Positions 35,872 to 64,000 of a DNA stretch of 64,000 nt are shown here, piece after piece; the first letter of the stretch is position 1; each line of letters begins with the position of its first letter. The stretch is from Cafeteria roenbergensis (Eukaryota; Sar; Bigyra; Bicosoecida; Cafeteriaceae): assembly GCA_008330645.1 (NCBI GenBank), contig VLTN01000021.1:475583-539582 (forward strand). The letters are read 5' to 3'. Under the pieces are notes generated by a model. It ran no database searches, was not told the DNA's origin, and worked only from the letters and a program-made list of their open reading frames with translations. Both the position numbers and the translations under genes were made by a program.

Positions 35872-36405
35872 CACACCCGCGGTGTCGGTTGGCGTACGTG
35901 AGGGAGCTGAGAGGCGCGGCACGGTGCGTCGCGGCGGCCGGCCCGCGCCATTTTGCAACTGCGTGCGGAGCAGCCTCGCCGCGCAATGCCGCAGGTGTCG
36001 CGACCCCCCCAGCGGACTTGCCTCGCCGCACACTTTGGCCGAACGCGTGGGCCTCAGCCGCCCCGAGGCGCCGCAGCAGCCCGCCACACGCATGCCCGCC
36101 ACACCACAGCCGCAACCGGGGCGGCTCTGCCGGCGCTGGCCAGCCGTGGCGTGACGCCGGGCCGGGAGCCAAGGCGCGCGCGGCGCGAAGAATCCCCTGC
36201 CGCGCGCCTGCCGCGTGCGATGCCCCACCCCTTGCGTCGAAAGCAGGGGCGCGAGCGGCGCGGGCGGGGGCGGTCGGCGCGGGGGCGGCGCGGGCGGCGG
36301 AAACGGCTGGCCGGCAGAGTCGCTCTCGGCGACAGGGTCAGCGTTGGTGCCCGCGCGCGCTGCTGTCGTCGTCGGTCACACTCGCTCGACCCCGAGCCAG
36401 CAACC
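35872..36405. other. Intergenic region
   Basis: 534 bases with no gene seen, between the bromodomain gene and the mastigoneme gene, both on the plus strand. A short hairpin (ACACC-CGC-GGTGT) follows directly after the upstream stop; it is weak and could be chance. Confidence 0.5.
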
Positions 36406-38079
36406 ATGCGCACCATCGCCGCCCTTGTGGTGCTCGCGGCCTCGGCCATGGCCTCGTGCCCCAACCTCTGCTCCGGGTGAGCCTGGCCGCCCGCGAGCGA
36501 CCAGCGCTTCAGCGGCGCGAACGGCTCCGGGCTGCCTCGAGGTCGTTGCGTTGGCTGCGGCGCCCTCTCCGTGCCGCCTCGCTGCGCCCCGCCACCGGCC
36601 CGCGCCCCCGGCCCGCCTGCGTGCGTGCGATTCCGCCCTCGCAGCAACGGCCGCTGCGGCGCCGACGACAAGTGCACGTGCTACCGCGGCTACACCGGCA
36701 CCGACTGCTCTGGCCGTGAGACGAGAGATCGCGCTGCGCTCTCGCGCGCCGAGCCCCGAGCCCCGCTCCGAGCAGCCCGCCCGCACGCGCCCCAGGGAGT
36801 GCGCGCGTGGCGCCCGCTCGCGCCCGGGGGCCGGGGCCGCCCGGCCGCCGCCGTCGGTGCTGCCGCTCGGGGGAGCCGAGCCGTCCGGGTGGCTGGCGCC
36901 TCTTCCAACGCGGCCGTTGCGCCCACCCTCCTCTCTGCCCCGTCCTTGCCGCCTCCCGCCGCCCCCGTCCCCCTCCCGACGCAGGCAAGTGCCCGTACGG
37001 CAAGGCCTGGGTTGAGGGATCGGCCGAGGACCCCCACTCCTTCGCTGAGTGCTCCAACAAGGTGAGGCCTTTGCGTTCGCATGGCGTTGAGCGAGGCAGC
37101 GGACGCCTTGGCCCGCCGCGCCCGTGCCCGAGCGGGGGCGTCTGTCCGGAGGACACCCGGAGGCTTGCCCTGTCCTCCGCCCGCAAGCGCGGCAAGCAGC
37201 CCAGCGGCCTCGCCGCAGGGCGTGTGCCTTGCCGGGCGCGCGAGCTGTCGGCCCGCGGCCCCTTTCGCTCTCCACCGCTGCCCGCCGAGTCTCCCCGCGC
37301 CCCGTCCGTCGCAGGGCGTCTGCGAGCGCGCCTCCGGCATGTGCTCGTGCTACGAGGGCTACGAGGGCACCGCGTGCCACCGCTCCACGTGCCCCGGCGC
37401 GTGCTCCGGCCACGGCGTCTGCCGCTACATCGAGGAGCTCAGCACCAACTACGCCGAGTTCAACTGGGACACCACCAAGATCCAGGGCTGCGACTGCGAC
37501 GCCGGGTTCACCGGCCTTGACTGCGCCAGCCGCCTCTGCCCCATCGGCGACGACCCCATGACCGTGGCGCCGTCGCTGAACGGCCAGCGCTGGACCGTGT
37601 CCGTGGACTTCCACGGCGGCTTCCCCACCACCGCCGAGATCCACCTCGACATCGGCAACCTGGAGGACGGCAGCACGGTGTCCACCCGCCCCATCAACAT
37701 TTTGGCCAACAGCACCGCCCCGTTCGAGAAGACCCTCCTCGACACCGGCGTTATCAAGTCCATCGCGTCCAGCACCGTCGACTACTCCGAGTCCGGCGTC
37801 GTCTACACCTTCACGCTCCAGGACCCGCTGCGCCTCTCCTTCGTGCGCAACCGGTGGGAGTCCGACTGCACCGTTGCCGGCTGCCAGCCGCGCAAGCTCG
37901 CGCCCGTGCCCAAGGACGCGCTCGAGGCCGGCGCCGCCTTCGTCTCCGAGGAGCCCCACGTCAAGGCCGAGTCCGCCCGCTGCTCCAACCGCGGCACCTG
38001 CGACCCCGCCAGCGGCACCTGCGGCTGCTACGAGGGCTTCTACGGCCGCGCCTGCCAGTACCAGACTGTGCTCATCTGA
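36406..38079 (+). CDS. SIG1/Ocm-type tubular mastigoneme protein
   Basis: Proteins of this family form the tripartite flagellar hairs of stramenopiles, or (SIG1) are induced in diatom sperm formation. Four exons: 36406-36476, 36645-36715, 36985-37061 and 37315-38079, with introns of 168, 269 and 253 nt, all with GTGAG donors and CAG acceptors. All phases agree and the product is 327 residues. Exon 1 gives a signal peptide (MRTIAALVVLAASAMA) and SCPNLCSG. The joined exons rebuild EGF-like modules typical of the family: NGRCGADDKCTCYRGYTGTD, then KCPYGKAW and HSFAECSNK joined to GVCERASGMCSCYEGYEG, then CPGACSGHGVC, CDCDAGFTGLDC, a beta-rich linker of about 150 residues, and a final CSNRGTCDPASGTCGCYEGF. 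The PHSFAECSNKGVC block is the strongest family signature. Confidence 0.93.
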
Positions 38080-38565
38080 GCAGGGCGCCCGGCCCCTGTT
38101 TGCGTGCCCCAGCGCCGGCCTCGGCGCAGTGACCCGGCCGCAGCCTGCGCTCTTGCGGACTGTTGGCGCCCACCTTCGCCTGCCCGGTCGCCGCCCTGTC
38201 GCCCCGTTCGTTTTTCTTCTTCTTCGTCGGGGTGTGCGTGTGGGAGAGGGGGGTGGGGTGGGGGATGCGATGTGTGTCCCGCGCGACCTCACACAACCGC
38301 CGACCGCCTCGCACCACCGCGTGCGCACTCGCAAGCAAACACCCTGCCACGCGACGCGCGCGCGCGCTCCAGGCGAGGTTGGCTCCGGCCGCCTGTCGCG
38401 CGTGAACGCGGCGGGTTGCTGTTGGCGCGAGCCCTCCCCAAACCACGCTGCCGCAGCTCTGCTGAGCCGCAACTGCTCGTGTGGGAAAGGGGGGCAACGT
38501 CTCTTCCCCCGGCGCACCGCACGGCCCTGGGCAGCCGGGCGCGAGCCGTGGTTGGGGCCGCGGCG
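38080..38565. other. Intergenic region
   Basis: 486 bases with no gene seen, between the mastigoneme gene and the MATE gene. A T/C-rich run (38209-38226) and a G-rich run (about 38240-38265) are the only notable tracts. Confidence 0.55.
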
Positions 38566-40752
38566 ATGGACGTGGCTGACGATGGGTCGTGCTGCGGGCG
38601 GCTTCGACTGGCCCGCGCGGAAATGGGAAGCATCATTTCACTGGCGTGGCCTGTCACTCTCACCTCGCTGCTGCAAGTCGGTCTCGGGCTCGTGAACGTG
38701 GTTGTGCTCGGCCACCTCGGCGAGGACTCGCTGGCTGCCGCAAGCTTGGGCAACCTCTACGTCAACCTCTTTGGCAACGCGCCAGCTTCGGGCCTTGCCA
38801 CGGCGGTGGACACGCTGGCGGCCCAAGCGTTTGGCGCCCGCCGCATGTTCCGCATCGGCGAGGTGTCCATGAGGGCGGCCGTCCTTCTGATGGTCGCGTG
38901 CGTTCCATCGGCGGCCATGTTTTGCTTTGCGGAGCCGGTGCTGCTGGCCATGGGCCAGGACGCGGCGATTGCGCGCCTGGCAGCATCCTACTGCCGCTGG
39001 CAGCTCATCGCCCTGCCCGCGACGCAGCTCTTCGAAACGTCGAAGAAGTACTTGCAGGCGCAGACACTGACGCTGCCGCCCGTGCTGGCGGCCGCTGCCG
39101 CGATCCCCGTCAACGCCCTGCTGGCGCTGGCGCTGACGCGATCCGACGCCATCGGCTTCGTGGGCGGGCCCATCGCCACCGGGATCGCCACCTGGCTTTC
39201 CCTGGCGCTCGTGCTCGCCTACAGCTGGCGGCGGGAGCGGTACGCCTCCTGGGCCTTGGCAGAGGCCTCTTCCCTGGCTGGCACGGAGCTGGCGTCCCTC
39301 GTGCCGCACACGGCGGGCGGCGACTCGGGCGACGCGGACCAGTGGCGCGGGGACTCCCTGACGGGTCCGCCGGGAGGGGAGGCGGAAGAGGCTGCGTCTG
39401 ACTCGGAGCCGCTGTCGGCGGGGCCGGGGTCCGCTCGCGGCGACGACCTCGCGGGGGGCGTGGCAGCGCCGCCGCCGCCGCTGCAAGGCGGCAGGGCGGC
39501 GCCTTCCCTCGGCTCCCCGGGGACATGCGACCCGCTGTTGCCGGTGTGTGGCTGCTGCTGCCCTGCGGCGCAGCGGTCGCTCCTGCGGCGCGTGGCCAGT
39601 CGGATTCGCGAGGCCGAGGCGGCAGCCGCGAGAGGCGCCGCGGTGGCGGAGGCGGTCGCGGGGGCGGTGGATGCAGACGGCAGACGAGCCGGCCGTGCTT
39701 CGCCGCGCGCTATGGTGCCGGCTGTCGCGGCAGCGGCGGCCGGGGCGGTGAGGAGAGCTCCGGGGCGGGTGGAGGAGGGCCCCCCCGCGGCCTGCGACGG
39801 GCCAGCTGCAAGCCTCGCGTCAGTGTCGGCGGAGGGAATCGAGCTGACGGCGCTTCACAGCGCGGGGGCCGCGGCTGCCGCGATCAAGGAGGCACAGACG
39901 CCCGGGGCGGCCCCGGCGTGGCAGCCGTCGCCGGCGGAGGCCGCGTCGCTCGTCGCTGCCGGCGCCACTGCACACGCGCACGAGAAGGACGTGGACGCCG
40001 TGCTGCTCCGCACGTGGCCGGGCTGGTCCTGGTCCGCTGCGTGCTCGGAGTGGGGCGAGTTCCTGTCGCTCGGCCTGCCCGGCGCCGTCATGACCACCCT
40101 GGAGTGGGGCACCTTCGAGGTCAACGCCGTGTTTGCCGGGTGGCTGGGCGTGACGGAGCTGGCGGCGCACAGTGCCTTGTCGCAGACCGGCGCCGTTGCC
40201 TTCATGGTGCCGCTGGGGCTGGCGGTGGCGAGCGCGGTGCGCATCGGCGCGCACATGGGCGCGGGCCGCCCGGGCCGGGCCAAGGCCGCTCTGGGCGCGG
40301 CCGTCTTGTGGGGGCTGCTGTACACGTCGCTCAACGCGCTTGTCCTTGTTTCGGCGCGGCAGCAGTGGGGGTACTTGTTCGCGAGCGAGCCGCGAGTGGC
40401 GGACGCTGTCGCTGGTGTGATGCCGATTATGGCATTTTTCAACGTTTTCGACACCTCGCAGGCCGTCATGAGCGGCGGGGTGCGAGGCGTTGGTCGGCAG
40501 GCCGTTGGTGCCGTGGCCAACCTCGTGGCCTACTGCGGCGTCGGGCTCGCGGGCTCGTACGCCCTCTCCACGGCCGCGGGCCTCGGCCTGGGGGGCATTT
40601 GGCTTGGCTCCGCCTGCGGGGCTGGCGTGGGGTGCCTGCTTCTCTTGCTTGCCCTGCTCTTGTCGGACTGGGGCGCCCTGTCTGCCCTCGCCATCCGCCG
40701 GGCGGAGCGAGTCGTGCCCAGCGACGCCTCAGTTACCAAGCTGCAGCAGTGA
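38566..40752 (+). CDS. MATE-family multidrug/toxin extrusion transporter
   Basis: Cation- or proton-coupled exporter of organic cations and drugs, 12 membrane helices. 728 residues from the ATG at 38566 (MDVADDG), single exon; an ATG at 38623 (MGSIISLAW) is the alternative. The N-terminal MatE half is clear: SLAWPVTLTSLLQVGLGLVN, VVLGHLGEDSLAAASLG, GLATAVDTLAAQAFGARRMF and ALPATQLFETSKKYLQAQ. The second half restarts at EWGEFLSLGLPGAVMTTLEW, with AAHSALSQTGAVAFMVPLGL and FDTSQAVMSGGVRGVGRQ, then three C-terminal helices. Between the halves lies an insert of about 250 residues (roughly 225-480), acidic and Ala-rich with a CGCCCP cluster. Eukaryotic MATEs have a short loop there, so this is a large lineage-specific cytosolic insert. 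Confidence 0.93.
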   Translation: MDVADDGSCCGRLRLARAEMGSIISLAWPVTLTSLLQVGLGLVNVVVLGHLGEDSLAAASLGNLYVNLFGNAPASGLATAVDTLAAQAFGARRMFRIGEVSMRAAVLLMVACVPSAAMFCFAEPVLLAMGQDAAIARLAASYCRWQLIALPATQLFETSKKYLQAQTLTLPPVLAAAAAIPVNALLALALTRSDAIGFVGGPIATGIATWLSLALVLAYSWRRERYASWALAEASSLAGTELASLVPHTAGGDSGDADQWRGDSLTGPPGGEAEEAASDSEPLSAGPGSARGDDLAGGVAAPPPPLQGGRAAPSLGSPGTCDPLLPVCGCCCPAAQRSLLRRVASRIREAEAAAARGAAVAEAVAGAVDADGRRAGRASPRAMVPAVAAAAAGAVRRAPGRVEEGPPAACDGPAASLASVSAEGIELTALHSAGAAAAAIKEAQTPGAAPAWQPSPAEAASLVAAGATAHAHEKDVDAVLLRTWPGWSWSAACSEWGEFLSLGLPGAVMTTLEWGTFEVNAVFAGWLGVTELAAHSALSQTGAVAFMVPLGLAVASAVRIGAHMGAGRPGRAKAALGAAVLWGLLYTSLNALVLVSARQQWGYLFASEPRVADAVAGVMPIMAFFNVFDTSQAVMSGGVRGVGRQAVGAVANLVAYCGVGLAGSYALSTAAGLGLGGIWLGSACGAGVGCLLLLLALLLSDWGALSALAIRRAERVVPSDASVTKLQQ

Positions 40753-46978: not shown

Positions 46979-47299
46979 GCAGAGGCGCTCGGCAGCCGCG
47001 CACGTTCCCCACCGCCCAGCTTTGCGTGGCTCGCCGCGGAACCCGGTGGTGCGCCCCGCGCGCTCTGGGTGCTGGCCGCAAGGCGCAACCGCGGTCGGCT
47101 CTGCACTGCAACCATGCTGCGCAATCACTCACCGAGACCGCCGCTGCACGGGTGCAACTCCAGCGCCTCCGAGCCGGGGCCGACAGGAAAGCGAAAGCAA
47201 GGGCACCATCAGCCAGCGCGGCGTGGCGTGGCGCTTCCCACTCCCCCTGCATCCGGGCAGCCCCCGCAGTCCGCGAACATCGTTCGGCGACCTGGCGAC
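46979..47299. other. Intergenic region
   Basis: 321 bases between the ceramidase-like and GH3 genes on the same strand; no gene is seen. Confidence 0.55.
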
Positions 47300-49810
47300 A
47301 TGAGGCCTCTCTCCCGCGCCCTTCTGGCCGCTGCTGCGGCGGCGGCCGGAGCCGCTGTGGCCCTCGCCGACCACACGCCCAACAACAACGCGTTTACCAA
47401 CCGCACCTGCGGGCTGGGCTTCCAGTCCCTTCCGTTTTGCAACGCTTCAGCCTCGGTTGCCTTTCGGGCGGCGGATCTGGTCGGCAGGCTCCATTCGGAG
47501 GACAAAGGGCCACTGCTCACAGCCCGCGGCTCGCCCCGCGGCAACCTCGCCAGCGCGCCGTACATTGGCCTCAATGTTTTCGACTGGGGCGAGAACGCCC
47601 TGCACGGGGACCAAACGCTGTGCGTATCGGACCCGGAACACGGAGGCGTCGGGCGCTGCTCCACGTCGTTCCCGATGCCCAACGCAGCCGGCAGCAGCTT
47701 TAATCGGTCTGCCGTGCGGGCCATGGGCTACATCATCGGCCTCGAGGCGCGCGCGCAGTGGCGCGTCAGCGACACGGAGGCGTCCGTTTGGAGCGGCCGC
47801 CCGCCCATCGGGCCGCAAACCTGGAGCCCCACCATCAACGAGCCGCGGGACCCGCGATGGGGGCGGTACCAGGAGGTCCCCAGCGCGTCGCCGCTCTGGC
47901 TCGGCGAGTACGCCCGCGAGTATGTGGCCGGCGCGCAGTACGGGTTGGGGCCCGACTCTCTGGCGCGCGCTGCGGGCCTGGCGCCCGGCGACGCCAACGG
48001 GACGCTGCTGACAGTGACGTGCGTCAAGCACCTCGTCGCGTACTCCCTGGAGGGCCGCCCCGGCAGCAGCGTGTCTCGCCACAACTTCGACGCTCTGGTC
48101 GCCCCATTCGACATGGCCGACACGTACCTCAAGGCCTTCCACGCAGCTCTGGGCGGGGACCTGCCGGCCCTGGGCGTCATGTGCTCCTATAACGCCGTGA
48201 ACGGCGCGCCGACCTGCGCCGGCGGCGGCGGCGGCGTGGTCCGGGAGTACCTGCGCGAGCGCTGGGGCTCCCAGGCATACATGACCAGCGACACCGGCGC
48301 GATCACAGACATCTACGACGCCCACCACATGGAGCCCACGCCCGAGGCAGCCGTGTGCGCCGCACTCGTAAACGGCTCCACGGATATGAACAGCGGCGAC
48401 GTGTTTTGGCACCACGTGGAGTCTGCCGTGTCGCAAGGCCTCTGCGGCTGGGGCGATGTCGACGCTGCCCTGCGCCGCACCCTGGGCCTGCGCATCCGCC
48501 TGGGCCTGATGGACGACCCGGCGTCAACCCCGTACTGGAACGTGCCGCTGTCGGTGATTGGGTCCGACGCCCACGTCGCGGTGGCTCGCCAGGCCAGCCG
48601 CGACGCCCTTGTCTTGCTGAAGAACGACGGAAAGGTGCTGCCGTTCCGCCGCGGCGGCGTGGTGGCTGTCATCGGGCCGCACTCGCAGGCGCGCGAGGCG
48701 CAGCTGGGCTCATACCTGGGCCAGATTTGCTCCAACCCCGACAGCAACGCAAACGACTTTTCCTGTGTCATGTCGCCGCAGGAGGCAGTAGCGGCCGCCA
48801 ACACGGGGGGCAGCGTGATCCAGGCAACCGGGTGCAGCGTGGACGGCGACAACACGTCTGGCATCGCGGAGGCCGTGGCAGCGGCCAAGCAGGCGGACAG
48901 CGTCATTCTCATGGTTGGCAGCGACCAGTCCGTCGAGGGCGAGTCGCACGACCGGATCAGCATCGACTTGCCTGGCGTGCAGCACCAGCTCATCGCGGCG
49001 GTGGCGGCGGTGGGCAAGCCCACAGCAGTCGTGATTATGCGAGGAGGTCCCGTGGACGTGGACCCGGAGCGCCGAAACAAGGCAGTCGGCGCGATGATCG
49101 ACGCCGGGTTCCCGGGGCAGTATGGGGCGGAAGCCATCGCCTCCGCAGTGTTTGGCGACTTCAGCCCTGGCGGACGACTCGCAACCCACTTCTACCACGC
49201 GGACTATGTGAATGGGATCAACATGACCGATATGCGCATGGCCTTCGGTCCGCAGCCGCGGGGCGACAGGTACTTCCCTGCCGACCAGACGGTGTTTCCG
49301 TTTGGCGCTGGCCTGAGCTACTCGACCTTCGAACTGCAGTGGACCCCTGCCAGCGCTGTTGGGCCGGGCAGATCGCCAGCGCTGCCCACCGGCAGCGGCG
49401 AAGGGGCCACAACGGCCCACGCGGAGGTGAAGGTGTCGAACACAGGCAGCGTGAGAGCGGACGTCGTCCTGCTGGCCCGGTTCCGCGTCAAGTCGCTGCC
49501 GCAAGGATCGCCATTGACCAGGCTTGCCACCGCTCTGCAAGGACAGCTCTTTGACTTCGCAAGGCTCACCCTCGACGCTGGGGAGTCGACCACCGCCTCA
49601 TTCGATGTGTCCGCTGCTGCCCTTGAGCTCGTGGACCCGGCGACCGGGGACACAGTCATCTCGCCGGGAACATTTCTCATCGAGATCAGCGAGTTCTCCA
49701 GTCAGCTTCAAGGGGAGGTCGACCTCGTCGGCCAGACGGTCGTTGTGGACAAATTCCCAGCACAAGCTGCCGCTGCGTATCGGCAGGCGGCTTCATCGCA
49801 GGCGGAGTGA
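47300..49810 (+). CDS. Secreted GH3 glycosidase (beta-xylosidase/beta-glucosidase type)
   Basis: Retaining exo-beta-glycosidase of family GH3, closest in motifs to the plant and fungal beta-xylosidase group. 836 residues from the ATG at 47300; the frame is open upstream, but this ATG starts a signal peptide (MRPLSRALLAAAAAAAGAAVALA). Motifs in order are NVFDWGENALHG, TSFPMPNAAGSSF, TWSPTINEPRDPRWGRYQEV, TCVKHLVAYSLEG, VMCSYNAVNGAPTC and AYMTSDTGAI with the nucleophile Asp at about 331. The second domain follows: ASRDALVLLKNDGKVLPF, VIGPHSQAR, VEGESHDRISIDLPG with the likely acid/base Glu at about 548, and FVPFGAGLSYSTF-type sequence (VFPFGAGLSYSTF) before a fibronectin-III-like C-terminal domain. 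Probably digests plant, algal or bacterial glycans outside the cell or in food vacuoles. Confidence 0.95.
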   Translation: MRPLSRALLAAAAAAAGAAVALADHTPNNNAFTNRTCGLGFQSLPFCNASASVAFRAADLVGRLHSEDKGPLLTARGSPRGNLASAPYIGLNVFDWGENALHGDQTLCVSDPEHGGVGRCSTSFPMPNAAGSSFNRSAVRAMGYIIGLEARAQWRVSDTEASVWSGRPPIGPQTWSPTINEPRDPRWGRYQEVPSASPLWLGEYAREYVAGAQYGLGPDSLARAAGLAPGDANGTLLTVTCVKHLVAYSLEGRPGSSVSRHNFDALVAPFDMADTYLKAFHAALGGDLPALGVMCSYNAVNGAPTCAGGGGGVVREYLRERWGSQAYMTSDTGAITDIYDAHHMEPTPEAAVCAALVNGSTDMNSGDVFWHHVESAVSQGLCGWGDVDAALRRTLGLRIRLGLMDDPASTPYWNVPLSVIGSDAHVAVARQASRDALVLLKNDGKVLPFRRGGVVAVIGPHSQAREAQLGSYLGQICSNPDSNANDFSCVMSPQEAVAAANTGGSVIQATGCSVDGDNTSGIAEAVAAAKQADSVILMVGSDQSVEGESHDRISIDLPGVQHQLIAAVAAVGKPTAVVIMRGGPVDVDPERRNKAVGAMIDAGFPGQYGAEAIASAVFGDFSPGGRLATHFYHADYVNGINMTDMRMAFGPQPRGDRYFPADQTVFPFGAGLSYSTFELQWTPASAVGPGRSPALPTGSGEGATTAHAEVKVSNTGSVRADVVLLARFRVKSLPQGSPLTRLATALQGQLFDFARLTLDAGESTTASFDVSAAALELVDPATGDTVISPGTFLIEISEFSSQLQGEVDLVGQTVVVDKFPAQAAAAYRQAASSQAE

Positions 49811-51085: not shown

Positions 51086-54000
51086 ATGCGCGCGATTTCG
51101 TGCGCGGTGTTCGCCGCGCTCGCGGTCTCCACGGCGCTTGCCGCCCCGACCGCCTCCTCGTTCGCCCCCAGCAACGGCGCCACCAACGTCCACCCGCTGT
51201 CCAGCGTCGCGGTGACGTTTGGCGCCGACGTGGTGGCACAGGCTGCCAAGCTGGTCGAGCTGCGGCGTGCTGGGACGGGACAGGTGCTGAGCACCGTTGC
51301 CGCGCTGTCCTCCTTTGTCAAGGTAACCGGCCCGACCGTCAGCATCTCGTTTCCCCTCGCGCACGTGCCGGCCGGCTCCGTGTACGTGACGATCGAGGCT
51401 GGCGCCTTCGTCAGCAAGGCGGACCAGACTCCGTTCGCCGGCATCGCCGGGTCAACCTGGTCGTTCGAGTTCCAAGGTGAGAGACAAGGAGCGCAGCCGC
51501 TGGCGCGGCCATCGGCCCAGTCCGCACGGTCCGCACGGTCCGCACGGCCAGCACCCCGGCCCAAGCGTGGGTCCTAAGCCGCTGCCCTGGGCGGGCACGA
51601 CTTGCCAGGAACCCGGCGCATGGCAGCAGCTGCTGTTGCTGTTCTCGATCTTGATCCGGCCGCATCACCAACTTGAAGTTGCGAGCAAAAGTTTCCAGCG
51701 CGAGTGCGGGAGACAGCCGCTCTCTCCGCGGAGCAGCGCGACTCCCTCGCACGCTGCCGTGCCCACCGCGAGCAAGCCTGCTTTCCCGCGCATGTAGCGC
51801 CCACGCTCGGGCCGTGGCGGCACCAGCGTTGCTGCGTCCCTCGTTGCGCCGGGGCTGCCAGCGGCAGCACGGCTGCCCTGCTCTCGCGCCAGCTGTCCTT
51901 GCGGTTCAACGCCCCGCTGCCCCCCGTTTCGTCGCTGCGCTGACTTTGGGGCACTCGCAGGAAGCCTGGGGTGCGCGGCCCTGCTCCGAGGCCCGGATGA
52001 GCCCGCCCCGGCCAGCAACAACGACGTGTCCGTGGCCTTTGCGCTCGGCACGAACGCCAACACGGCCTGCGACATGCGCTTTGATGGTGAGTCATGGCAG
52101 CCCTTGCCCCAGCAGCGCACAGCCAGGCAGCTTGCGAAGCTGCTCGCGCGCGGCATTCCAGTGTCTGCGTGGGCGACAGCAGCAGCGTGCTGGGCCCGCC
52201 GTCCCTGGCGGGCTTGCGAGCGGGCAGTTACCTCGTCGCGAGCGCCTCACGCGTCCTCCCCCCGTCCCGCCCTTTGCGTCCCCGGCGCGTCCGCGCAGGT
52301 GCCTACACCCTGATCGGCTACACCGACTCGGCCATGGGCGGCGACCTGACGTCCGCGCGCGGCTCCTTCAACGCCAGCATGCGCAGCGGGTCCGCCACCG
52401 TGGGCGACGCCCGCAACCTGGTTCGCGCCTCGAGCGCGCTCGCCTTCTCGCTGTCGGCCACCTCGGCGAACAGCGCCTCGTCCGCCATGGGCGGCGGCGT
52501 GTCCGACTACTCGCACGCCTTCCGCATGAGCATCCCCAAGCCCGGCGCCCAGCAGCTGACGCTGGCGGCCACGTGCTCGGCCAACGCCGTGGAGAACGAC
52601 TCGGACCGCTTCGGCAACGACCTCATGTCCGTCGCCTTCCCCTCGGACCACAGCGACCCGGCTGGCGCTTGCGCTGCCGCGTGCTGCGGGCACGCGCAGT
52701 GCGCTTCCTGGTCACTGTCCACCCGCGCGGACACGCCCTTTGGCGCGTGCAACGTCGGCGACAAGTGCTGCTACCTCAAGAGCACCGCCGGCTCCCAGGG
52801 CTACAACGCCGGCGGCAAGTCCGGCACCGTGACGCGCACCAACAAGGACTGCTCCGACGCCTCCTTCGCCCCCACCACGGTGGACTGCCTGCCCGGCGCG
52901 GACGCCGACCAGTGCGGCGCCGTGTCGCTGCCCCCGCGCATGCTCACCGGGGCTGCCACCATGGCCGTGGCCGGCGGCACCTCCTACGGCGCCGTGGCGC
53001 GCGTGTCGGACGCCTCGGCCGCCACCTGCAGCGTGGGCCCGCTCGGCCTGGACGGCTACGCGGCCCTCATGCTGCGCGCCGACGGCTCGTCCACCCTGCG
53101 CTCCGCCATCAGCCCCGCCGGCGGCGGGGGCAGCGCGAGCACCGTCAACGCCCAGTCGGCCGCGGTGTGGGCCTTCACGGAGCGCCGCTACAAGTCCTGC
53201 GCCGACGCGCTGAGCACGGTCCGCTCCGGCGACCTGCTCGGCTGGTGGTCCATGGCCTCCACCCGCGCCGGGGACGGCAAGATCCGCGACCTGTCCGGCA
53301 ACGGCCGCGACCTCGTGCCCGCGGACATGGCCCGCACCGCCTCTGGCGGCCTGGGCGCTCTGTCCCTTGACGGCGCAGCCAGCCGCGCGGACGGCGCGGC
53401 CGGCTCCGGCCCCGAGGCCCTCCGCGGCGACAAGGCGTCCACCGTGTGCGCGTGGGTGCGCTGGGAGGCGTCGTCCTGGGGCACCGCGGCCGCGCCCATC
53501 TTCTCGCTCAGCAGCCCGCGCACCGCGCGCACCAACCAGGGCTTCAGCTTCGTTGCCCCGGGCGGCAGGCCCGGCCTCGGCTTCCAGGGCGTGCGCGTGC
53601 TGACGCGCGACTCCGTCCTGTCCCCGCTCACGTGGCACCACGTGTGCGCGTCCCGCACCGGCCCCGGCGCCAAGCTGGCCAACACTCGCGTGTGGGTGGA
53701 CGGCGCCATGGTGTCGGCCCTCAAGCTCGACTCGGACGCGGCCGTCGCGGGCTCGCCGGACGAGACCGCCGCCGTCGACGTGATCCCCGCCCCCGTGGCC
53801 GTTGGCGTGCTGGCCAACGCGGCCACCGGCACGGCGGCCTACTGGAACGGGTTCGTGCGCGACGTGCGCCTGTACTCGCGGTCCCTGTCCACGGCGGAGG
53901 TGCGCGACGTGATGACCTTCGACGGCGTGTCCGCCACCGTGATGGCCTCCGCCGTGTCGGCCGAGCGCCAGCTCATCGGCGAGTGGGACTTTGACGCCAC

Positions 54001-57000
54001 CGGCGCGGCGGGCACCGGCTCTGCCGCACAGATCGCTGCCGTCCGCGACGTGGTTGGCGGCAACGACTGCACGCTCGAGGGCACGGCCGAGGTGGCTGAC
54101 GGCGCGCTGGTGCTGGACGGCAAGGGCCACGCCAAGTGCGGGTCCGTGCCCAAGTCGCTGAGCTCCTACTCGCTCGAGGTGACCCTGACGCTCTCCGACC
54201 TGGTGCAGCGCGGCGGCGGCGCGATGACCCTCTCCGACGGCGCGAGCGAGTCCGTTTTCGACTCGCTGGTGTACGGCGAGTCCCGCTCTGGGGAGTGGGT
54301 CGACGGCTCGGACCAGGCGCAGCGCACTTCCAACCTGCAGCCGCCGCCCGAGACGGCGTCCCCCACGGACGTGATCCACATGGTGATGACGGTGGCCTCC
54401 AACGGCGTCCGCGCCATCTACCGCAACGGCGCCCGCATCACGCAGCACACTGCCAGCCTTCAGGCGTACACGGCCGGCACGTCCGCCGTGCTCTTCGGCT
54501 GCCGCCACGAGGACTGCTCGGGCACTGGCACGGTGACCACACGGCGGCTCAAGGGCCGCATCCTGCACGCCCGGCTCTACCAGTCGGCGCTCTCGGAGGC
54601 CGAGGTGCGCGCCGTGTACGCCACCGGGACCAAGGGCGTGGCGCGCGTGCCCCCCTCGATGCGGTCGGGCGAGCGCACGCTGGTGCTCCCGCCCGGCGAC
54701 TCCACCCCTGTGACCGTGACGGCCAAGTGCGACATGGACGCGATGGGGGGCGGCTGGACCCGCTTCTGGTGGGTCGGCCCCGAGCAGACCTCCTGGCCCT
54801 CTGGCGAGAGCGACGTGCTGGGCGGCACCTTCGGCTCCTGCTCCGCCGACGCGAAGTACTGCTTCGGCAAGATGCCCTCGGACATCCGCGAGGACCGCGC
54901 GCAGCTGCTGGCCCGCGATTCTACGGGCACCGCGTACGTGTGGGACTTTGACCCCGACAACGAGGTGGCCCATGCGGCCTGGGAGGCGTTCAGCGAGGGA
55001 AAGGGGACCGAGTTCGACGAGACCAGCGGCACCGTCGCCTGGAACCCGTCGGCCGTCCTCGGCGGCACGTTCCACGGCCGCGACCAAAAGTACTTCATGT
55101 ACCGGTACGAGAACGGCGTGCGCTCCTTCCAGCTGAATGACGACCAGTGCTCGTGCTTCAGCACGCTTGAGGCCGGCATCACGCTCTGCCGCGGCTCCTC
55201 GGACCCCAACACCGTGCCCTCGACCCTCGGCGTGGACAAGCTCAACGGCGAGGGCTGCACCAGCCCCGGCTTCTCCACCAGCGTGGAGCTCTTCGTGCGC
55301 GAGCGGCCCTCCACCGAGTCGGCCGCCGTGGGCGTGCAGCGTGCCGTCGTGTTCGTGCGCGAGTCGGAGCCCGTGGTCCGCATCCCCGTGGAGCGCACTG
55401 GCCCGCTCTCCGACGCGGCCGCCGTCTCGTACATGACCATGGACGGCACCGGCGTGGCCGGCACCAACTACGTGGCCGCCCGCGGCCGCGTGGCGTGGGC
55501 CGCCGGCGAGGGCGGCTCCAAGTCGATCATCGTTCCCATCATCCTCGACACCGGGATCGGCGCCTCGGACAAGACCTTTTCCGTGCAGCTGCTCGCGCCC
55601 GAGCACGCCTCTCTCTCCACGGCAGCCGACGAGACCAGCGTCACCATCCGCGTGGAGCGCACCGGCGTGTCCGGCACCCCCGGCCCGCTGTCCTTCAAGC
55701 AGGAGGGCGGCTCGACGGACGTGCAGCTGAACATCGCGGCCCAGACCAAGGGCGGCATGGCCTTCTCGTCCGGCGCAGACACCTCTTCCGGCTCGTGGTT
55801 CTCCGAGGCCAACGCCATCGACGGCGACTACGGCCAGCTGCAGGCGTTCCGCCCCGACGCGGCCGCGCCCCTCGCGGGCGCCGGCTCCACCGCGTCCCCG
55901 AACATGCCGTTCATCGGCGTGGTGCTCCCCGAGCGCACGCTCATCGACCACGTGGCCTTTGGGCGCGACAACACGGGCGTGCACGCGAACCACTGGCGCG
56001 GCCAGGTGGCGGTGGAGGTGACAACGGTCCCAGCCCCCGATGCCAACACGCTGCAGTCGGAGTGGACTCTCGTGGACACCGTCACGATGACCACTCCGCT
56101 GCGCCGCCTGTACGCCTTCAACTCCCCCACCGAGGCCACGGCCCTGCGGCTGCGCCTGATCAACTCCACCAGCGAGGTGATCATCATCGACGAGCTCGAG
56201 GTGTACCAGGCGGGCGCGGTGCCCAGCCTGACAGCCGGCATGCTGGCCCAGTACACGTTCGAGGCCGCCACTGTGTCCGACCCCTCCAAGGTGGTCGACA
56301 CGTCCGGCAATGGCAACGACGCCGCTGTCAATGGCGTGGTGACCTTCGGCATGGAGGGCTCCTTCGCGGCCGCCCGCTTCCCGAAGCGCGACTCCGACAC
56401 GGCCGTGCCCGCGTACCTGGAGGTGCCGGCGCTGAAGAACTTCGCGTGGGACCAGGCCTTCACCGCCTCGGTGCTCGTGAAGCGCGTGGGCTCTGGCGGG
56501 TTCGCCGGCGTGCTCGGCAACGGCCGCGGCGTCGACGGCTCGTTTGAGATCCGCACGACTCCGTCCAACGGCGGCCAGGAGGTGGGCGTGAGCGTGAACA
56601 CCGTTGGCGGCCACAACTCGGGAGAGTTCGTGCTTCGCGGCCAGGCCGTCCCCGTGGGCGACTGGCACCACATCGTGCTGACGTACGGCGACAACGCCAC
56701 GTCGCTCTGGATCGACGGTGAGGAGCTGATCAAGTCCGTGTCCGGCACCGTGGTGCGCGTGGACCAGCCGCTCTTCATCGGTGTGTCGGGCAACCCCAAC
56801 AAGCCCGTTGGCTCGCGGCCCTCGGCTGCGCTTCCTGCAGCCGCGGAGGAAGGGCTTGACGGCTTCGTGCACGACGTGCGCATCTACAACAAGAGCTTCA
56901 CTGGCGTGGACGTTGCCGCACTGTGGCGCACCTACGAGAGCACGATCAAGCGCGAGGGCCTCGTGGCCTGGTGGCGCCTGGCCGAGTCCAGCGGTACTGT

Positions 57001-60000
57001 GATCGTCGACGACTCCGGCAAGAGCGTGACCGGCGCCACGTCGCAGTCCGGCACCAGCTGGGGCGACGGCGGCCTCATCCTCGACGGCACCGCGGGCAGC
57101 GCCTCGTCCTCCAGTGCCCTTGCCACTCTCAACGGGGACGCAGCCTTCAGCGTGTGCGCCTGGGTGTTCCCAGGCCGCACCGCCTACTCAACTGACATCA
57201 ACGATGTGGAGTACATTGTGGGCCTGGACGGCTCGGCGCCAGGCACCTGGTTCGCCCTCGCGCTCCGCCGCGGCGTGCCGTCGATCGAGTTCGGCGGCAA
57301 GACCCGCGTGGAGCACCAGACCGGCACGAAGCTTGCGCTCGGCCAGTGGAGCCACGTGTGCTTCTCCAAGTCGCCGGGCGTGAAGACGGGCCTAGGCGGG
57401 GCGCCCAGCTCCACACGGCTCTTCGTCAACGGTGCGGAGGCCCCCATTCGCCTCTCGTACTCGGCACTGGACGGCGTGACGTTTGACCAGGCCAACGCGG
57501 CGCCAAGCATTGCCACGTCGAACAAGCTGACCGTCGGCGCCATCGGCGGCACGAGCTTTTTCAAGGGCGTTGTGGCGGACGTGCGCGTCTTCTCGCTGGC
57601 CGTCTCGCAGCGCCAGGTGTCCTCGGCCTTCAACGGCGGCCGAGTGCTGGCCTGGGGAATGCACGAGGGCCAGGGCGAGTCCGTGTACAGCGCCGACGGC
57701 GAGGCCACCGGCGTGGCCGGCACCCTCTCCGGCTCGACCTGGAGTTGGAACGGCACCCTCCTGTCCTTTGCAAACCGCGGGGACGGCATCCAGAGCGCCG
57801 GCTCGTCCGTCGGAATCTTTGGCGACGCCGCCCTGTCGCTGTGCGTCTGGGTGTTCTACACGCCAAGCGCCTGGCCGACCGCCTCGGCGGCCACTGGGTC
57901 CAACGGCGTCGTCGAGATCGCTGGCTTCGCGCCCACCGTCGTCTCCGGCGGCAGCGGCGGGTCCACCGCCGCAAGCATGACCATCGCCAACACCGGGTTC
58001 GTTCTCTCAGTCGTGAATGGCCTGCCCGCCGTCGACTTTGGCGGCGGCGTGTTCGTGGTGGCGGACGGCGCAGCGACGCTGCTGCCCAGGCGCTGGGCGC
58101 AGGTCTGCGCAGTCAAGTCTCCCGGCGCCAAGGCGACGACCACGAAGCTGTACATTGACGGCTCGCTCGTGCCCACGAAGCTCGCGGACATGAGCGGCGT
58201 CGAGGGTGGCCTGAGCAACGCGGTGCTCGACGCCCGGCCGAGCATCCGCTCCTCGCCCCTGCGCGTGGCAACGGTGTCCCCGAAGGACTCCCTCACCGCA
58301 GCGATGCGCCTCTCGTTCGTCGGCGTGGTGGACTCCGTCAGCCTGTACCGCCGCGCCCTGGACCAGGCGGGCGTGAGCGCGATCAACTTCGCGTCCAAGT
58401 TCGACCACGTCCGCGACTACGCGCTCTCGTTGCCTGGCACCGATGAGCACGCCACAATCACCCCCTTCCTGCTCGGCGGCAGCGACATTACCGTTGAGAT
58501 GTGGGCCTTCTGCCAGGACACTTCCAAGTTTTCGCAGACGCTCTTCGACTTTGGCAACTCGCCCTCCAGCTCCCGCATCACCGCGTATCTGGCCCCCGAG
58601 TACCCGTACAAGCTCCGCGTCTCGGTGCAAAACGCCCCCACCGATGCCGTGTCCGTCCTGGAGACGATCTCGGGCTTCTCGCGCGGCCGCTGGCTGCACG
58701 TGGCCTACACGCAGTCGGGCACCACGGGCACCATCTTCCTGGACGGCAAGCCCGTGCGCTCTGGCACCATGCCGCAGCTGGCGTCGGCCGTGCGCGCCAA
58801 GATGCTCCTCGGCAAGTCCATCGGCCCGAGCCAGTCGAGCTTCTACGGCAAGCTGGACGAGGTGCGCATCTGGTCGGTGGCCCGGACGGCGGCGGAGATC
58901 ACCGCGGGCATCGCCTTCTTCCCCTTCCCGACGCTCGCCCAGGCGGACGAGATGAAGCTGCAGACATACATCCCCTTCGACATCATCTTCTCCAGCCCGC
59001 ACCACGACGAGGTCCTGCTGCAGGGGGCTTCGCCGGCCAAGGACCAGTCCGGCCACGGCCGCGATGCCACCGTCGTGTGCGAGAATGCGGACGCTGGGAC
59101 TTCGGGCGGGTCCTCTTCCGCTCTCCCTGCCGGGCTCCTTGCGCGCACCTGCGTGGTGGCCTCGCCGCGCTCCGCGACCCGCTCGCTCTGCAACAACGGC
59201 TTCCGCGAGGTCGGAGAGGAGTGCGACGACGGCAACACCGTGTCAGGCGACGGCTGCAGCAGCACGTGCAGCATCGAGTCCGGGTGGGTGTGCGAGCATG
59301 AGGACTTCAGCGCTGCCGACGTGTGCACGCAAGCCACTGTCATTGCCATGGACGGCTTTGAGAGCGCGGGAAACCCCGCGGGCATGCCCTCGCCCCCCGT
59401 GTGGAGCCCGTCGCGCGGCAGCGAGGGAACCTGGACCGTTGGGGGTGAGTACGCCTTCAGCGGAAGTAGTGGCCTTCGCATTGTGCAAAAGGACTCCACG
59501 ACGAGCGCCACGGGCTGGATTACCTTTGGCCAGACCGTGGTTTCGGGTATCAAGCCCGGCGTCTTCCTGAAGCTCCGCTACAACGTGCGAAAGGCCGACT
59601 TCGCCAAAGCCGCGGCGCCTTTGGTCGTGCAGCTCACTGACGGGTCCCAAAACCCGGCCCCCACGACCTGCCTGTCAGCCACGGGGTGCGGAACCTCCCG
59701 GGTGTACAGCATTTGCATCAACGCCGGCACCATCAGCGGCTGCGACGAGAGCGTGGCATCCAAGGCCGAGACGTGGAATGCCCTCACCGCAGACGTCAGC
59801 CACAAGTTCACCTCCAAGTACAGCATCCAAGTTGCGCCCGCCAGCGTCCGTGTCCGGCTCATGTCGGTGGCCGACGATACCGAGGCCGAAGTGTGGCTCG
59901 ACGACTTCCGCATGGTCAGCCTCACGAACTTGCAGTCATGCGGCCGAATCGCCGCCACGTCGGCTGCGGGCGGCTCGGCCGGGGGCAGCGACCCGACAGT

Positions 60001-63000
60001 GTACGTCCGCTTCCCCCAGCTTGACAGCCAGCCGACTACTGCCGCCACGCCCAACTGGAACACCGAGATTACGAACTTCCCCACGGAACAGTACAGCATC
60101 TCGTTCTGGGCCAAGGGCAAGGGATACTACCATTCCGATAGCAGCGGCATGACAAACATTGCCCTGTTCCACATCAAGTCTACCTCCAACATGTACCAAA
60201 TGATGCTCTACACGAGCTACGAAACGATGTATGTGTATGTGCATGGAAACAGCTATGGGTATTCGAGCACCTGGCAGCCGTCGTCCACGACGTCCAAGCC
60301 GACTTGGACTCACTTCACCGTCACGTACAATTCCCGTGCAAGCGGCTGCTCTGGGCGCTTCGTGTTCTATGTCAACGGGATCGAAAAGGGTCGCTCATGC
60401 ACCAGCCGCGGGGATGCAAGCCCAGCAGGTCGGCTTCTCGTCGGTGGAATGTGGTACTCTTCGAGCTACACAGACACGCAGGCGTACTACTACTACCACG
60501 ACCGCAACGGCCTTAGCTTTGCCGATGTTGCCGTGTACAACAAGGAGCTCACGTCTGCCGATGTGACGGATGTGTTCAGCGCGCCTGTCAGCAGATCGAG
60601 GACCGATCTCGTCACCCTCTTTGCTCGCGACAGCGCCGTGACCTCAGACGGGCGTCGCGTGACCTACTGGAACGACACTGTGGCCGGGCGAAAGCTGGAG
60701 GACACCCGCTCGTCGGGCATCGGCCCGGCGGAGCAGATCAACCTGTTCCACCCCAAGGAGGGCACGACCTCCGAGCCCCCTCCGCTGTCAAATGACGTTG
60801 CCATTGACAAGGACGACCGCTTCACCAAGTACATCGCGTTCCAGCGGACGACAGTGGATGGCTATGCGTACTCCTTCTGCTACAACTACTACGCTGGCTA
60901 CTCGTGGCCGCCGTCGAGCTACGGGATCCACATTGCGGCATGGACACGATTTGGGTCAGCGAGCGAAACCGGACGCACGAACACGTACCAGACGCTGTTC
61001 CACATGTACTACTCGTCTTCGTCGGAGTTCTACGTGTACAAGACCTCCGGGATGTCTCCGACCACGTATTACAAGATGGGCAACCGGGCCATGTCAATCA
61101 GCAACTTTTGGCAGTACGACTACGACTGGCATCTGTTCACGTTCGAGTACGCCCTGTCGACGGCTTGCAGCAACACCATTGCTCTGCGCGCAACGCTCGA
61201 CAAGGGGACGGTCCTCTCCCCGACGGAGTCCTGCTCGTACAGCACTGGGTACTACATGTACACCACGTCGTCCTCGAACCTTTTGATGGGGCGCTACCTC
61301 ACGTCGTCATACTACTACAACTATGACAGCTACAGGTCGGGCCTTTTCATGGACGTGGCCCACTTTGTCATTTACCGGGGAGCATCATCCAGCTCCGGAA
61401 ACTACATGCTGACGTCGACCAACATAGCCAGCTTGTACGACGCAGAAAACCTTCCGACAACGGTTGGCGACAAGACGCGCACCGGCCAGTGGGGCTACCT
61501 CACCACAGACACCAGTGCCATCGCCAAGAACCCTTCCGTGCGCTCCTCGCTCTCGGGCAGCCAGATTTCGTACCTTACGAGCCACCTGACGACGTCTTCG
61601 TCCTACTGGATGTACTGCTCCTCTGACAGCACCAGCTACAGCCCCGTTGCCAAGTTCGGTGACGACGCTCCCGGCGGGTCGGCACAAGATCCGTCGAAGC
61701 TTCCCTCTGGCGGCGTCTTCCCCCACTGGAGCATTCGCAACAACGAAGGCCTTTCCTACCTCGCTTCTGAGTCGGCAGACGCGGTCAAGACTTGGCCAAC
61801 CGGTGACATGAGCGTCAGCGTGTGGCTGCGCGCCACCAGAGGCATGGACCAGGGAAGCTCCACTCACGCGACCATCCTCTCCTTCGCGAACGAGGCATCC
61901 ACTCAGGCGTTCGAGCTGCGAGTGGGACAGGCCAAGGACGGTCCGCTGTCAGTGGTGGTGGGAGGCGACGTGCTGTCTGTGCCCCGAATTTCGACCAGCT
62001 CGATTGCGACGGGGACTTGGGTCCACTTGGTTGTGACGCGAGTCGCCGCGTCGGGCTCTGTGGGTGTGTTCTTTGAGCGGAACCTGACCGACACCGGCGT
62101 GCTGTCCGCGGGATCTGGCACCCCGGCTGGCGATGGCTGCCTTGTGGTTGGGGCTGCACAGTCCGGCGCCCCCTGCTCCGGCATGGCGGCGAGCACTGGC
62201 TTCCGAGGCGACATCGCCCAGCTCAGCGTGTGGTCTCGAGTGCTCTCGGCACAGGAGGTTTCCGACCTGTGGTATGCTGCGCCGTCCACGTACCAGGCCG
62301 GGCTGGAAATCTCGCTCAACGCTGGCATTAAGGCCGCGCCGGGAAAGGTTGGCAGGTGGCTCGACGCCCGCACTGCCACAGAGGGCGCCCCCGTGCTTGT
62401 TACCGGTGGACCTTCTGCCCCAATTTGGCGCGAAGGCAGCACCACTGCGTACGTTGCAGCTTGCGACTACTCCACGTATTCACTGTACAGCAGCTATGGC
62501 TACATTGAGACGACCACTGGACGCAAGATCTTGCAGCAGTCGAGCTACTACATGACCATGATCATCTGGGCATCGGGCACAATGGACGACTCGTACACCA
62601 TGACAACCCACTCCAGCCCAGGCTACACGAGCATCACTGCAGCAGAGCAATCCATCACGAGCGCTAGCAACGACGCGCTCATCCTGGTGATGTGCTCCTA
62701 CAACGGCTGCCAGCTTGGAGGAACGGCCAGCTCCAACTCGCTGTTCCAAAAGATGAAGCTCTTTGGAGCGACTGACGCCAACTTTCCATCAACCACTGGG
62801 CCGTACCTTCTGGTTGGCCGGAAGGGTGATTCGAAGGCCGTGATCGAGCAGCTTCAGGCCCAGGGGACGTGCGCGACGGGCTGGCTTTCCGACTCGGACG
62901 ACCTGTTCTCGTCCATCACCATCGACAACAACGGCAACGCCACTGAAGCATCGGCCAAGCAGCCGGGCCTGAACCTTGCCTTCCTCGACGAGACCAAGAA

Positions 63001-64000
63001 AACCGTCCTCGCGCAAGGCTCCTTCTCGCTTGATCTGGAAGGCCTGCAGGGCAAGGAGGGCATCCGAAAGTTCATCGCCGAAGCGCCCTCGGGCGGAATC
63101 CTGGTCGGCGCCACCCAGGCGCCCATCGGGGGCAAGTTCGATACTCCCACAACTGCGGCGCTGGAGTCCAACTTTGGCGTGGCGGTGCCGACCACACTTA
63201 CGTCGGGCACGTCCTGGGCATTCTTCGGGCTCGGCAACGCGTCGGTGGGCACTGTTCCCGCGGCGCTGGCGAGCAGCGGCAAGGCGTCGGTCGGGACGCG
63301 GCTCGCGTGCCTGATCCAGTCCGACAACATGGGTGGCGCCCGAGAACCTCGGCCAGGTCGGGTCCGCGGTTGGCTACCCCCTGGCGATGCAGCCGCAAGT
63401 CCGGGCGTACGGCTTCCTGATGGCCCGCGAAAGCAGGTGCGGCAGCGACAACAAGGCCGCCTTTGACATCGAGACGGCCACAGGCTCCATCGTTGTGTCC
63501 AACCCGGCCAACCTGGACGCTGCCACCTGCGACAAGCACCGCCTGTTCGTGGGCTCTTTCGCCGAGCGCTTCAAGACGCCGTGGCGCGCCATGAAGTCCA
63601 ACGCCAACTCGGACGAGGCCCTGTGGGAGCTCGCTCACGGCAGAACATGGACCCAGCGGAGATGGAGGTGTTCCCCGAGCTGCGCTGCAAGTCCTCCAAC
63701 AACTCTGGCTTCGTGTTCAAGCCGTACTCGTCCGCGCCCTTGACTGACTACGCCCAGGCTGTCTACCCGACGACGTACACACTGCCTCACTCGGGCTTCT
63801 TCGCGCTCTGGAGCAACTCGATCGTGCGGACGTTCCTGCCTTCAAGGTGGCAGCAGTCGTCCTCCACAAGCTACGACTTCAACCGCCCTGCAGCGTGCTA
63901 CCTGCCGCCCCACTACGGCGGAGGCAGGAACGTGATGCCCCGCGACGACAACGCCGACGTGCGTATCCGCATCGACAAGATGAGCGCGGCGCCAGGCTTT
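51086..64000 (+). CDS. Giant secreted modular protein with LamG-like array (3' end beyond window)
   Basis: Exons: 51086-51476, 51961-52086, and 52299 to past the right edge; introns of 484 and 212 nt have GTGAG donors and CAG acceptors, with matching phase 1. At least 4070 residues. A signal peptide (MRAISCAVFAALAVSTALA) precedes a Big_5/Ig-like domain (SFAPSNGATNVHPLSSVAVT). Then follow a PAN/apple-like Cys-rich domain (about 52550-52840), two LamG-like domains (53210-54640), a fibrinogen-C-like domain (CDMDAMGGGWTRFWW, 54650-55210), a Calx-beta domain (55330-55650), a discoidin-like domain (55740-56220), four LamG-like domains (56230-58930), a DUF4215 Cys-rich repeat (GEECDDGNTVSGDGCSSTC), a MAM-like segment (59340-59930) and three Tyr/Ser-rich LamG-like domains (59990-62280). 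No membrane segment within the window. Probably an extracellular adhesin, matrix or flagellar-surface protein. Two frame breaks lie at about 63330 and 63640. Confidence 0.82.
53210..62280 (+). repeat. Array of about nine divergent LamG-like modules
   Basis: Each module of about 230 residues shows the concanavalin-like pattern: W-A/W-x-F opening strand, a W-x-H-V/I strand (for example TWHHVCASR, GDWHHIVLTYG, RGRWLHVAYTQ, GTWVHLVVTRV), a V-x-V/I-D-G turn (RVWVDGAMV, TSLWIDGEEL, TIFLDGKPV) and a closing V-R-L/I-Y/W-S/N-R/K motif (RDVRLYSRSLS, HDVRIYNKSFT, DEVRIWSVART, AQLSVWSRVLS). They are protein-level repeats; the DNA has diverged and is not tandemly identical. Confidence 0.85.
63325..63645 (+). 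other. Out-of-frame segment between two compensating frame breaks in the giant gene
   Basis: Up to about 63330 the giant gene reads in one frame (ending near LIQSDNM). From there to about 63640 the sensible sequence is one base out (APENLGQVGSAVGYPLAMQ to NSDEALWELAHG). After that it returns to the original frame (QNMDPAEMEVFPELRCK) to the window end. The first break needs one extra base in GGG at 63329-63332; the second needs one missing base near GGCAG at 63639-63643. No splice signals fit such small steps. This most likely reflects assembly indels, or else a pair of real compensating indels. Confidence 0.75.

What the first reader, a model, noticed from the sequence alone, without database searches (positions are those of the whole stretch)
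51086..64000. Giant secreted multi-domain protein with a domain order I do not know from any family
A signal peptide, Ig-like, PAN-like, fibrinogen-like, Calx-beta, discoidin-like, Cys-rich DUF4215, MAM-like and about nine LamG-like modules are joined in one protein of more than 4000 residues, nearly all in one 11.7-kb exon. Single modules are known from animal and bacterial adhesins; this combination in a protist suggests a lineage-specific surface or prey-binding system.
Basis: partly seen in the sequence, partly recalled or inferred. Interest (0 to 1): 0.85.

Follow-up and report, generated by a model that had tools for sequence, protein, structure and literature searches.

The report
Giant protist surface receptor, private core
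This is the front half of one of six very large cell-surface receptor-like proteins of a marine bacteria-eating flagellate; the copies keep both ends almost identical but differ strongly in the middle, a pattern also known from nerve-cell protocadherins.

Summary
The giant multi-domain gene is real (51086 to the window's end; three exons) but neither complete nor, most likely, secreted. The window stops at a contig end. Three intact copies in the same genome (frames of 7933-7959 codons) and two relatives from elsewhere (7780, 7915 residues) continue with ILEI, seven or eight cadherin and six to nine IPT/TIG modules, a Cys-rich stalk, about nine membrane segments and a tail. The genome (probably Cafeteria burkhardae, near strain BVI) holds six copies, no two on one contig. 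Big_5, LamG, Calx-beta, ILEI and the Cys-rich repeat pass cut-offs; PAN and fibrinogen-like do not; discoidin and MAM found no support. New finding: regional concerted evolution. The copies are 90-100% identical in the first 1450 and the TIG-to-membrane residues (one window of the C80 copy: 79%), but 32-75% in a core that starts here near 59.7 kb, about as different as between species; only C21 and C51 are recent twins. The three cores that could be checked are 97-100% identical in other assemblies, so they are stable. The core holds a LamG pair, another LamG and ILEI modules. Best reading: long adhesion/recognition receptors with shared frames and private binding cores; ligands unknown.

The parts
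51086..51476 (+). exon 1: hydrophobic N-terminus (putative signal peptide) and Big_5 Ig-like domain (about 51143-51466)
   Evidence: ATG position; Big_5 27.0 bits over cut-off 23.6; splice site; a similar first exon in 5 of 5 loci searched (in C8 only residues 27-132 aligned)
51477..51960 (+). intron 1 (GT..AG)
   Evidence: junction as in P0016, P0018
51961..52086 (+). exon 2
   Evidence: P0016
52087..52298 (+). intron 2 (GT..AG)
52299..64000 (+). exon 3, open at the contig end; in three intact copies the frame has 7933-7959 codons
52604..52780 (+). PAN_4-like segment (below cut-off)
   Evidence: 25.5 bits, cut-off 27
53420..53902 (+). LamG
   Evidence: 44.5 bits
54125..54607 (+). LamG
   Evidence: 33.0 bits
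54689..54763 (+). GGGW fibrinogen-like signature (below cut-off)
   Evidence: NF040941 17.3 of 30 bits
55322..55648 (+). Calx-beta
   Evidence: 43.6 bits; matches Na/Ca exchanger chains of the PDB
56411..56914 (+). LamG
   Evidence: 54.3 bits
57086..57622 (+). LamG
   Evidence: 55.7 bits
58436..58900 (+). LamG
   Evidence: 81.2 bits
59186..59293 (+). Cys-rich acidic repeat (TIGR02232 / DUF4215)
   Evidence: TIGR02232 48.3 bits over 20.8
59740..64000 (+). private core, the part inside the window (C2 residue about 2480 onward; start approximate)
   Evidence: over 59888-61630 it is 88% identical to C51, 55% to C83, 50% to C2, 38% to C8
60068..60565 (+). LamG of the private core, first of a predicted LamG pair
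   Evidence: 45.5 bits (but hmmscan of 59876-61630 listed no family); fold match to the laminin LG4-5 pair
60866..61441 (+). second LamG-like domain of the pair, from a low-confidence part of the model
61787..62263 (+). LamG/pentraxin-like
   Evidence: 60.3 bits
62966..63229 (+). ILEI domain (best of two stretches)
   Evidence: 41.5 bits over 27
63320..63660 (+). stretch with two changes of frame, close to the contig end
   Evidence: P0016 and C51 are intact here

Best explanation
The window holds the 5' part of one of six members of a family of giant (about 8000-residue) multi-pass membrane proteins of Cafeteria. Layout, from the window and the intact copies: signal peptide, Ig-like, PAN-like, LamG array, GGGW segment, Calx-beta, more LamG, Cys-rich repeat, LamG pair, LamG, two ILEI, seven or eight cadherin repeats, six to nine IPT/TIG, Cys-rich stalk, about nine membrane segments, cytoplasmic tail. 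Shown: the family, the layout, and regional concerted evolution. The N-terminal part and the TIG-to-membrane part are kept nearly identical among copies on different contigs, while the core (LamG pair to ILEI, fading out through the cadherins) and the tail stay old and copy-specific. Inferred: the protein is a long adhesion/recognition receptor. The cadherin-TIG part is a calcium-stiffened stalk, the shared outer lectin array gives general glycan contact, and each private core gives its own ligand preference, passed on through the membrane module and a private tail. This is a protocadherin-like plan of shared frame and private recognition part.
For: Family: LamG and TM-module searches of the genome; the core search finds exactly these loci (7 matches). 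C67 starts with the last 544 bases of C80 (98%), so these two most likely form one gene and the loci number six. TM module in 5 of the 6 loci, the window copy being cut; nine C-terminal hydrophobic segments in C2, C83 and C8. P0030 (7915 aa) and P0031 (7780 aa): same layout, 55-56% identical. Regional pattern, C2-C83 dS per 250 alignment columns: 0.05-0.17 in the first six windows, 0.87-1.17 in the six at 2500-3999, 0.05-0.11 in the nine at 5500-7749. Copy distance divided by species distance: 0.02-0.32 in the 14 windows with data at C2 residues 0-1499, 0.59-0.99 in the 15 at 2500-3999, 0.00-0.14 in 20 of 21 at 5400-7499 (the other 0.31). Control: the P0030-P0031 profile is flat, 0.28-0.47 over six blocks. 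GC3 is 0.93-0.97 over the first 1500 columns (C80 down to 0.87) and 0.71-0.91 over 2500-3999. Runs of shared variants: 11 of 30 pair-by-block tests reached by 0 of 500 permutations, one of the 11 in the core. Cores with a counterpart in another assembly: C21-P0016, C8-P0029 and C80-P0017, distances 0.00-0.02 (the last over 275 residues only). Core fold: laminin LG4-5 pair ranks first (E 1.6e-9).
Against: No expression, localisation or binding data for this gene. Mean dN/dS in the core is below 1 (C2-C83 about 0.3-0.6), so diversifying selection is not shown. The boundaries are not sharp: the ratio is 0.16-0.55 at residues 1500-2499 and 0.19-0.66 at 4000-5399, and the C80 copy is only 79% identical to C2 (dS 0.57) in one N-flank window. 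The run test does not allow for rate differences along the gene. Cores of C2, C83 and C51 could not be checked in other assemblies. The membrane module matched no solved fold clearly, so signalling is a guess. The tail is not homogenised. The core model has low mean confidence (pLDDT 46.8).
Confidence: 0.72

Rival explanations
1. Passive escape: the core is copy-specific only because conversion fails once copies have diverged beyond a limit (or because conversion works from the ends); no selection for different ligands.
For: Mean dN/dS below 1 in the core; the P0030-P0031 control shows that the core does not evolve much faster than the flanks (0.42 against 0.34 and 0.28); gradual fade on both sides.
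Against: The tail past the membrane part is also private while the part just before it is homogenised; the three cores checked are kept distinct and unchanged in other assemblies.
Confidence: 0.35
2. Cassette exchange: the copies are recent duplicates that picked up old cores from a pool by recombination, instead of old copies homogenised at the ends.
For: Flanks have low dS in nearly every pair, which recent duplication would also give; mosaic runs.
Against: The gradual zones and pair-specific runs fit repeated conversion better; the private tail would need a second exchange.
Confidence: 0.2
3. The protein is structural: a cell-coat or flagellar-hair protein with no specific recognition.
For: Great length, repeats, and no known receptor fold in the membrane part.
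Against: Lectin-type folds, ILEI and private cores, with about nine membrane segments.
Confidence: 0.2
4. The near-identical flanks are an assembly or polishing artefact.
For: The window copy breaks off at a contig end and has two frame changes; C80/C67 and C51 show breaks too.
Against: Models deposited under other locus-tag prefixes (FNF27, FNF28, FNF31) have the same shared N flank, and P0029 also the shared C flank with the private core of C8; polishing should not turn saturated synonymous sites into 95% identity (my judgement).
Confidence: 0.05
5. Secreted adhesin.
For: Hydrophobic N-terminus; the C-terminal cluster of hydrophobic segments lies beyond the window.
Against: The window is cut by the contig end; the TM module is present in 5 of the 6 loci (C2, C51, C83, C67, C8) and in P0030 and P0031.
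Confidence: 0.03

Closest known systems
Clustered protocadherins (vertebrates; regional gene conversion, passages of PMC1852091)
   Same: Cadherin-bearing adhesion receptors whose copies share homogenised regions and keep a private ectodomain part; higher GC3 in the homogenised part, as the fugu paper reports
   Different: No two copies here lie on the same contig; the private part is LamG/ILEI rather than EC1-EC3; multi-pass; the tail is private; no common origin is claimed
CELSR/Flamingo (cadherin, LamG, seven-pass adhesion GPCR; features recalled)
   Same: Cadherin and LamG modules in front of a multi-pass membrane part
   Different: No GPS/GAIN or 7tm family among the Pfam matches of C2; about nine hydrophobic segments; other order; IPT/TIG and ILEI present
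TIG/cadherin proteins with the same Cys-rich plus multi-TM end (P0002-P0012, mostly metagenomic; P0012 is Cafeteria FNF28_04393)
   Same: Homologous TIG-Cys-rich-TM end, 28-34% identical
   Different: Their precomputed domain lists name no LamG, Calx-beta or ILEI, but several may be fragments cut by short contigs
Hypothetical protein FNF31_03620, Cafeteria roenbergensis (P0029)
   Same: Deposited counterpart of the C8 copy: core distance 0.00
   Different: Named only as hypothetical / cadherin domain-containing

Membership tests
Cadherin superfamily | Tandem cadherin repeats over the curated cut-off | tested here: met
   In copy C2: 205.6 bits, 7 stretches at E up to 5, 6 at E up to 0.01; not in the window, which ends before them
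Cadherin superfamily | Calcium-site motifs (LDxE type, DxND type; motifs recalled) | tested here: met
   By loose pattern count only: 8, 8 and 9 LDxE-type and 6 DxND-type motifs each in C2, C83 and C8
Clustered protocadherins | Regional homogenisation between copies with a private ectodomain part | tested here: met
Clustered protocadherins | Tandem gene cluster | tested here: not met
   No two of the six loci share a contig
Clustered protocadherins | Single membrane pass (recalled) | tested here: not met
   Nine C-terminal hydrophobic segments in C2, C83, C8
CELSR / adhesion GPCR | GAIN/GPS proteolysis site | tested here: not met
   No such family among Pfam matches up to E 5 in C2 from the cadherins to the end (L012:4797-9998 and L013 pieces)
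CELSR / adhesion GPCR | Seven-pass GPCR fold | tested here: inconclusive
   No 7tm Pfam match; AF2 model pLDDT 66 without a clear fold match
Secreted multi-domain adhesin | No membrane anchor in the full-length protein | tested here: not met
   inferred for the window copy from the other copies
Prey-recognition receptor | Binds bacteria and is used in feeding | not testable with these tools
   Only indirect expression data for domain classes (PMC7852580 passages)

The most novel reading that the evidence does not exclude
A single-celled stramenopile runs a small repertoire of giant recognition receptors by the same evolutionary logic as vertebrate protocadherins: ectopic gene conversion keeps an 8000-residue frame uniform across dispersed loci, while selection protects six private LamG-ILEI cores and tails that tell apart surfaces (self, prey types or substrata).
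Probability: 0.3. Interest if true: 0.82.

Novelty: new variant of a known kind. Interest (0 to 1): 0.6.

Why it matters
How bacteria-eating flagellates recognise surfaces is poorly known at the gene level. This gives six loci with defined private domains that can be expressed and tested for ligands. It also offers a case outside animals where conversion-homogenised frames surround copy-specific, lectin-like parts, so one can ask whether that plan arose independently.

Tried and rejected

Fibrinogen, discoidin and MAM labels: looked for with Pfam, NCBIfam and PDB sequence searches. The intelectin/fibrinogen/ficolin hits fall on the first 180 profile positions, which I read as the N-terminal domain of P0019, not the window. 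Labels dropped or kept as weak.

Subtelomeric position: several copies lie near contig ends, but the pattern TTAGGG x 3 has 0 matches in the assembly, so this could not be tested. Rfam scan of the window: 0 matches at gathering scores.

Antigenic-switching idea: not supported, because the three cores that could be checked are nearly identical in other assemblies.

Print check: the rows listed by searches showed no paper on this family or on gene conversion in it. Only open-licence papers are held, and listings are cut.

Rows left out: C21 is not in the copy set (near duplicate of C51); the second frame of C51 and the first frame of C67 were not used; one search drops rows filled under half in a block and leaves out P0017, P0018, P0019 and P0001; one search uses only C2, C83, C8 and C51; residues 100-199 gave no result. 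P0018 has no core to compare. The whole-genome searches score only their best candidates (150 of 316). One search was a script error, mended as 46. Searches were frame, wording or size errors: 13 became 16, 20 became 21 without P0012, 59 became 62, 68 became 72, 69 became 79 and 80, 75 was replaced by the smaller 76 and 78, 32 was not repeated. One search was a form error of this report.
Full report
What was checked. The window frame 52091-63466 and the upstream ATG at 51086 are real. Exons are 51086-51476, 51961-52086 and 52299 onward, with GT..AG introns, and corresponding junctions appear in protein models P0016, P0017, P0018 and P0029. The window is G000:C21:475583-539582 and C21 has 539582 bases: the gene runs off the contig. 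Its frame changes twice in the last 700 bases; P0016 (99% identical, source not shown) and the copy on C51 are intact there.

Organism. GC about 70%, 36.3 Mb and 167 contigs, and close hits to Cafeteria roenbergensis proteins FNF27_06396, FNF28_07209 and FNF31_03620, point to Cafeteria burkhardae (published as C. roenbergensis), closest to assembly CrBVI (170 contigs, 36,327,047 bases; passages of PMC6972860). This is an inference.

The whole protein. A LamG profile matched 56 places in the genome, among them long frames on C2 (7933 codons), C83 (7959), C8 (7937) and C51 (6783 plus 1007), the window copy on C21, and C80 and C67, where C67 begins with the last 544 bases of C80 at 98%. I count C80 plus C67 as one gene, hence six loci; a search with the core alone finds the same seven places and no other. 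The TM-module search gives 40 matches, of which 19 cover 380 or more of the 707 residues: five belong to this family (C2, C51, C83, C67, C8) and 14 to other giant frames at 35-40% identity. In C2 the scans show cadherin (7 stretches), TIG (6 stretches over three pieces; nine pattern matches), ILEI, a DUF7630-like Cys-rich segment below cut-off, and nine C-terminal hydrophobic segments. The mature protein is therefore most likely a multi-pass surface protein.

Relatives. P0030 and P0031 (55-56% identical over 87% of the query part) have the same layout at full length. P0019 (35% over 48% of the query) has part of the order, with an extra weak fibrinogen-like start. P0001 is 73% identical to C2 over the TIG-to-tail part. 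The order thus reaches beyond this species, but was seen only in these relatives, in searches that score a limited number of candidates.

The main finding. Distances between copies change tenfold or more along the gene. In the first six windows of 250 columns the nine pairs tested are 90-99% identical, apart from one window of C80 (79%). From 2500 to 3999 the C2, C83 and C8 pairs are 32-64% identical, and all pairs tested except the recent twins C21-C51 are 32-75% (dS 0.6-2.3). From 5500 to 7749 pairs are 90-100% identical (dS 0.03-0.19). The stretch 1500-2499 is intermediate (75-96% without the twins), and the last part is private again (41-79%). In the core the distances from C8 to C2 and to C83 (1.00, 1.03) are about that from C2 to P0030 (0.92), while in the two flanks they are 0.03-0.06 against 0.53-0.66. 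One history with region-specific rates would keep the ratio of copy to species distance constant; it goes from below 0.1 to about 1. The control pair P0030-P0031 is flat (0.28-0.47). Block trees agree: in the N and C blocks all Cafeteria copies form one tight group apart from P0030/P0031, while in the core the C8 branch (0.88) is longer than that of P0030/P0031 (0.60). GC3 is lower in the core, in line with the higher GC3 that the fugu paper reports for homogenised protocadherin parts (passages of PMC1852091). Permutation of shared variants gives 0 of 500 in 11 of 30 tests; that test does not allow for rate differences, so it is supporting evidence only.

Stability. P0016, P0029 and P0017 are counterparts of C21, C8 and the C80 copy in other assemblies, with core distances 0.015, 0.00 and 0.022 (the last over 275 residues). 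Cores of C2, C83 and C51 had no counterpart to compare. Fast switching is therefore unlikely for the three checked.

What the core is. hmmscan listed no Pfam family for 59876-61630, although the genome search scored a LamG at 60068-60565. AF2 (pLDDT 46.8 overall, about 75 over most of its first domain) gives two beta-sandwich regions in a row, the second at low confidence. Foldseek ranks the laminin LG4-5 pair first (E 1.6e-9), followed by neurexin, CELSR1, pentraxin and other lectin-fold chains. A further LamG and ILEI stretches follow.

How it may work. Shown: layout, membrane part in the other copies, shared frame, private core and tail. Inferred: cadherin and TIG repeats form a long calcium-stiffened stalk; LamG, pentraxin-like and ILEI modules bind glycans or proteins; the private core sets ligand preference; the private tail sets the inside partner. 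Against a pure feeding role, the published transcriptome found laminin G and IPT domains enriched, and a cadherin gene up, in the starved phase (passages of PMC7852580), so attachment or sensing is at least as likely as prey capture.

Verdict. The novel point lies elsewhere: regional concerted evolution of dispersed giant receptors in a protist. The pattern is well supported; its functional meaning is not yet tested.

Noticed in passing
window 47168-49807 (+): A glycosyl hydrolase family 3 gene (GH3 N, GH3 C and Fn3-like over their cut-offs) lies directly upstream on the same strand.
   Followed up: partly
   Followed up: no
G000:C1:800995-801117 (-): An open frame of 11064 codons around a weak, below-cut-off LamG match.
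   Followed up: no
C51 joined stretch 33347-37806 and C83 joined stretch 28665-40000 (downstream of the genes): Stretches of up to 4.2 kb, 94-98% identical, repeated several times downstream of two of the copies; nature unknown.
   Followed up: no
P0002 (metagenomic relative): A TIG/TM relative whose source calls it Cu/Zn superoxide dismutase: possibly an enzyme domain fused into the same receptor frame.
   Followed up: no
G000: The pattern TTAGGG x 3 has no match anywhere in the assembly.
   Followed up: no
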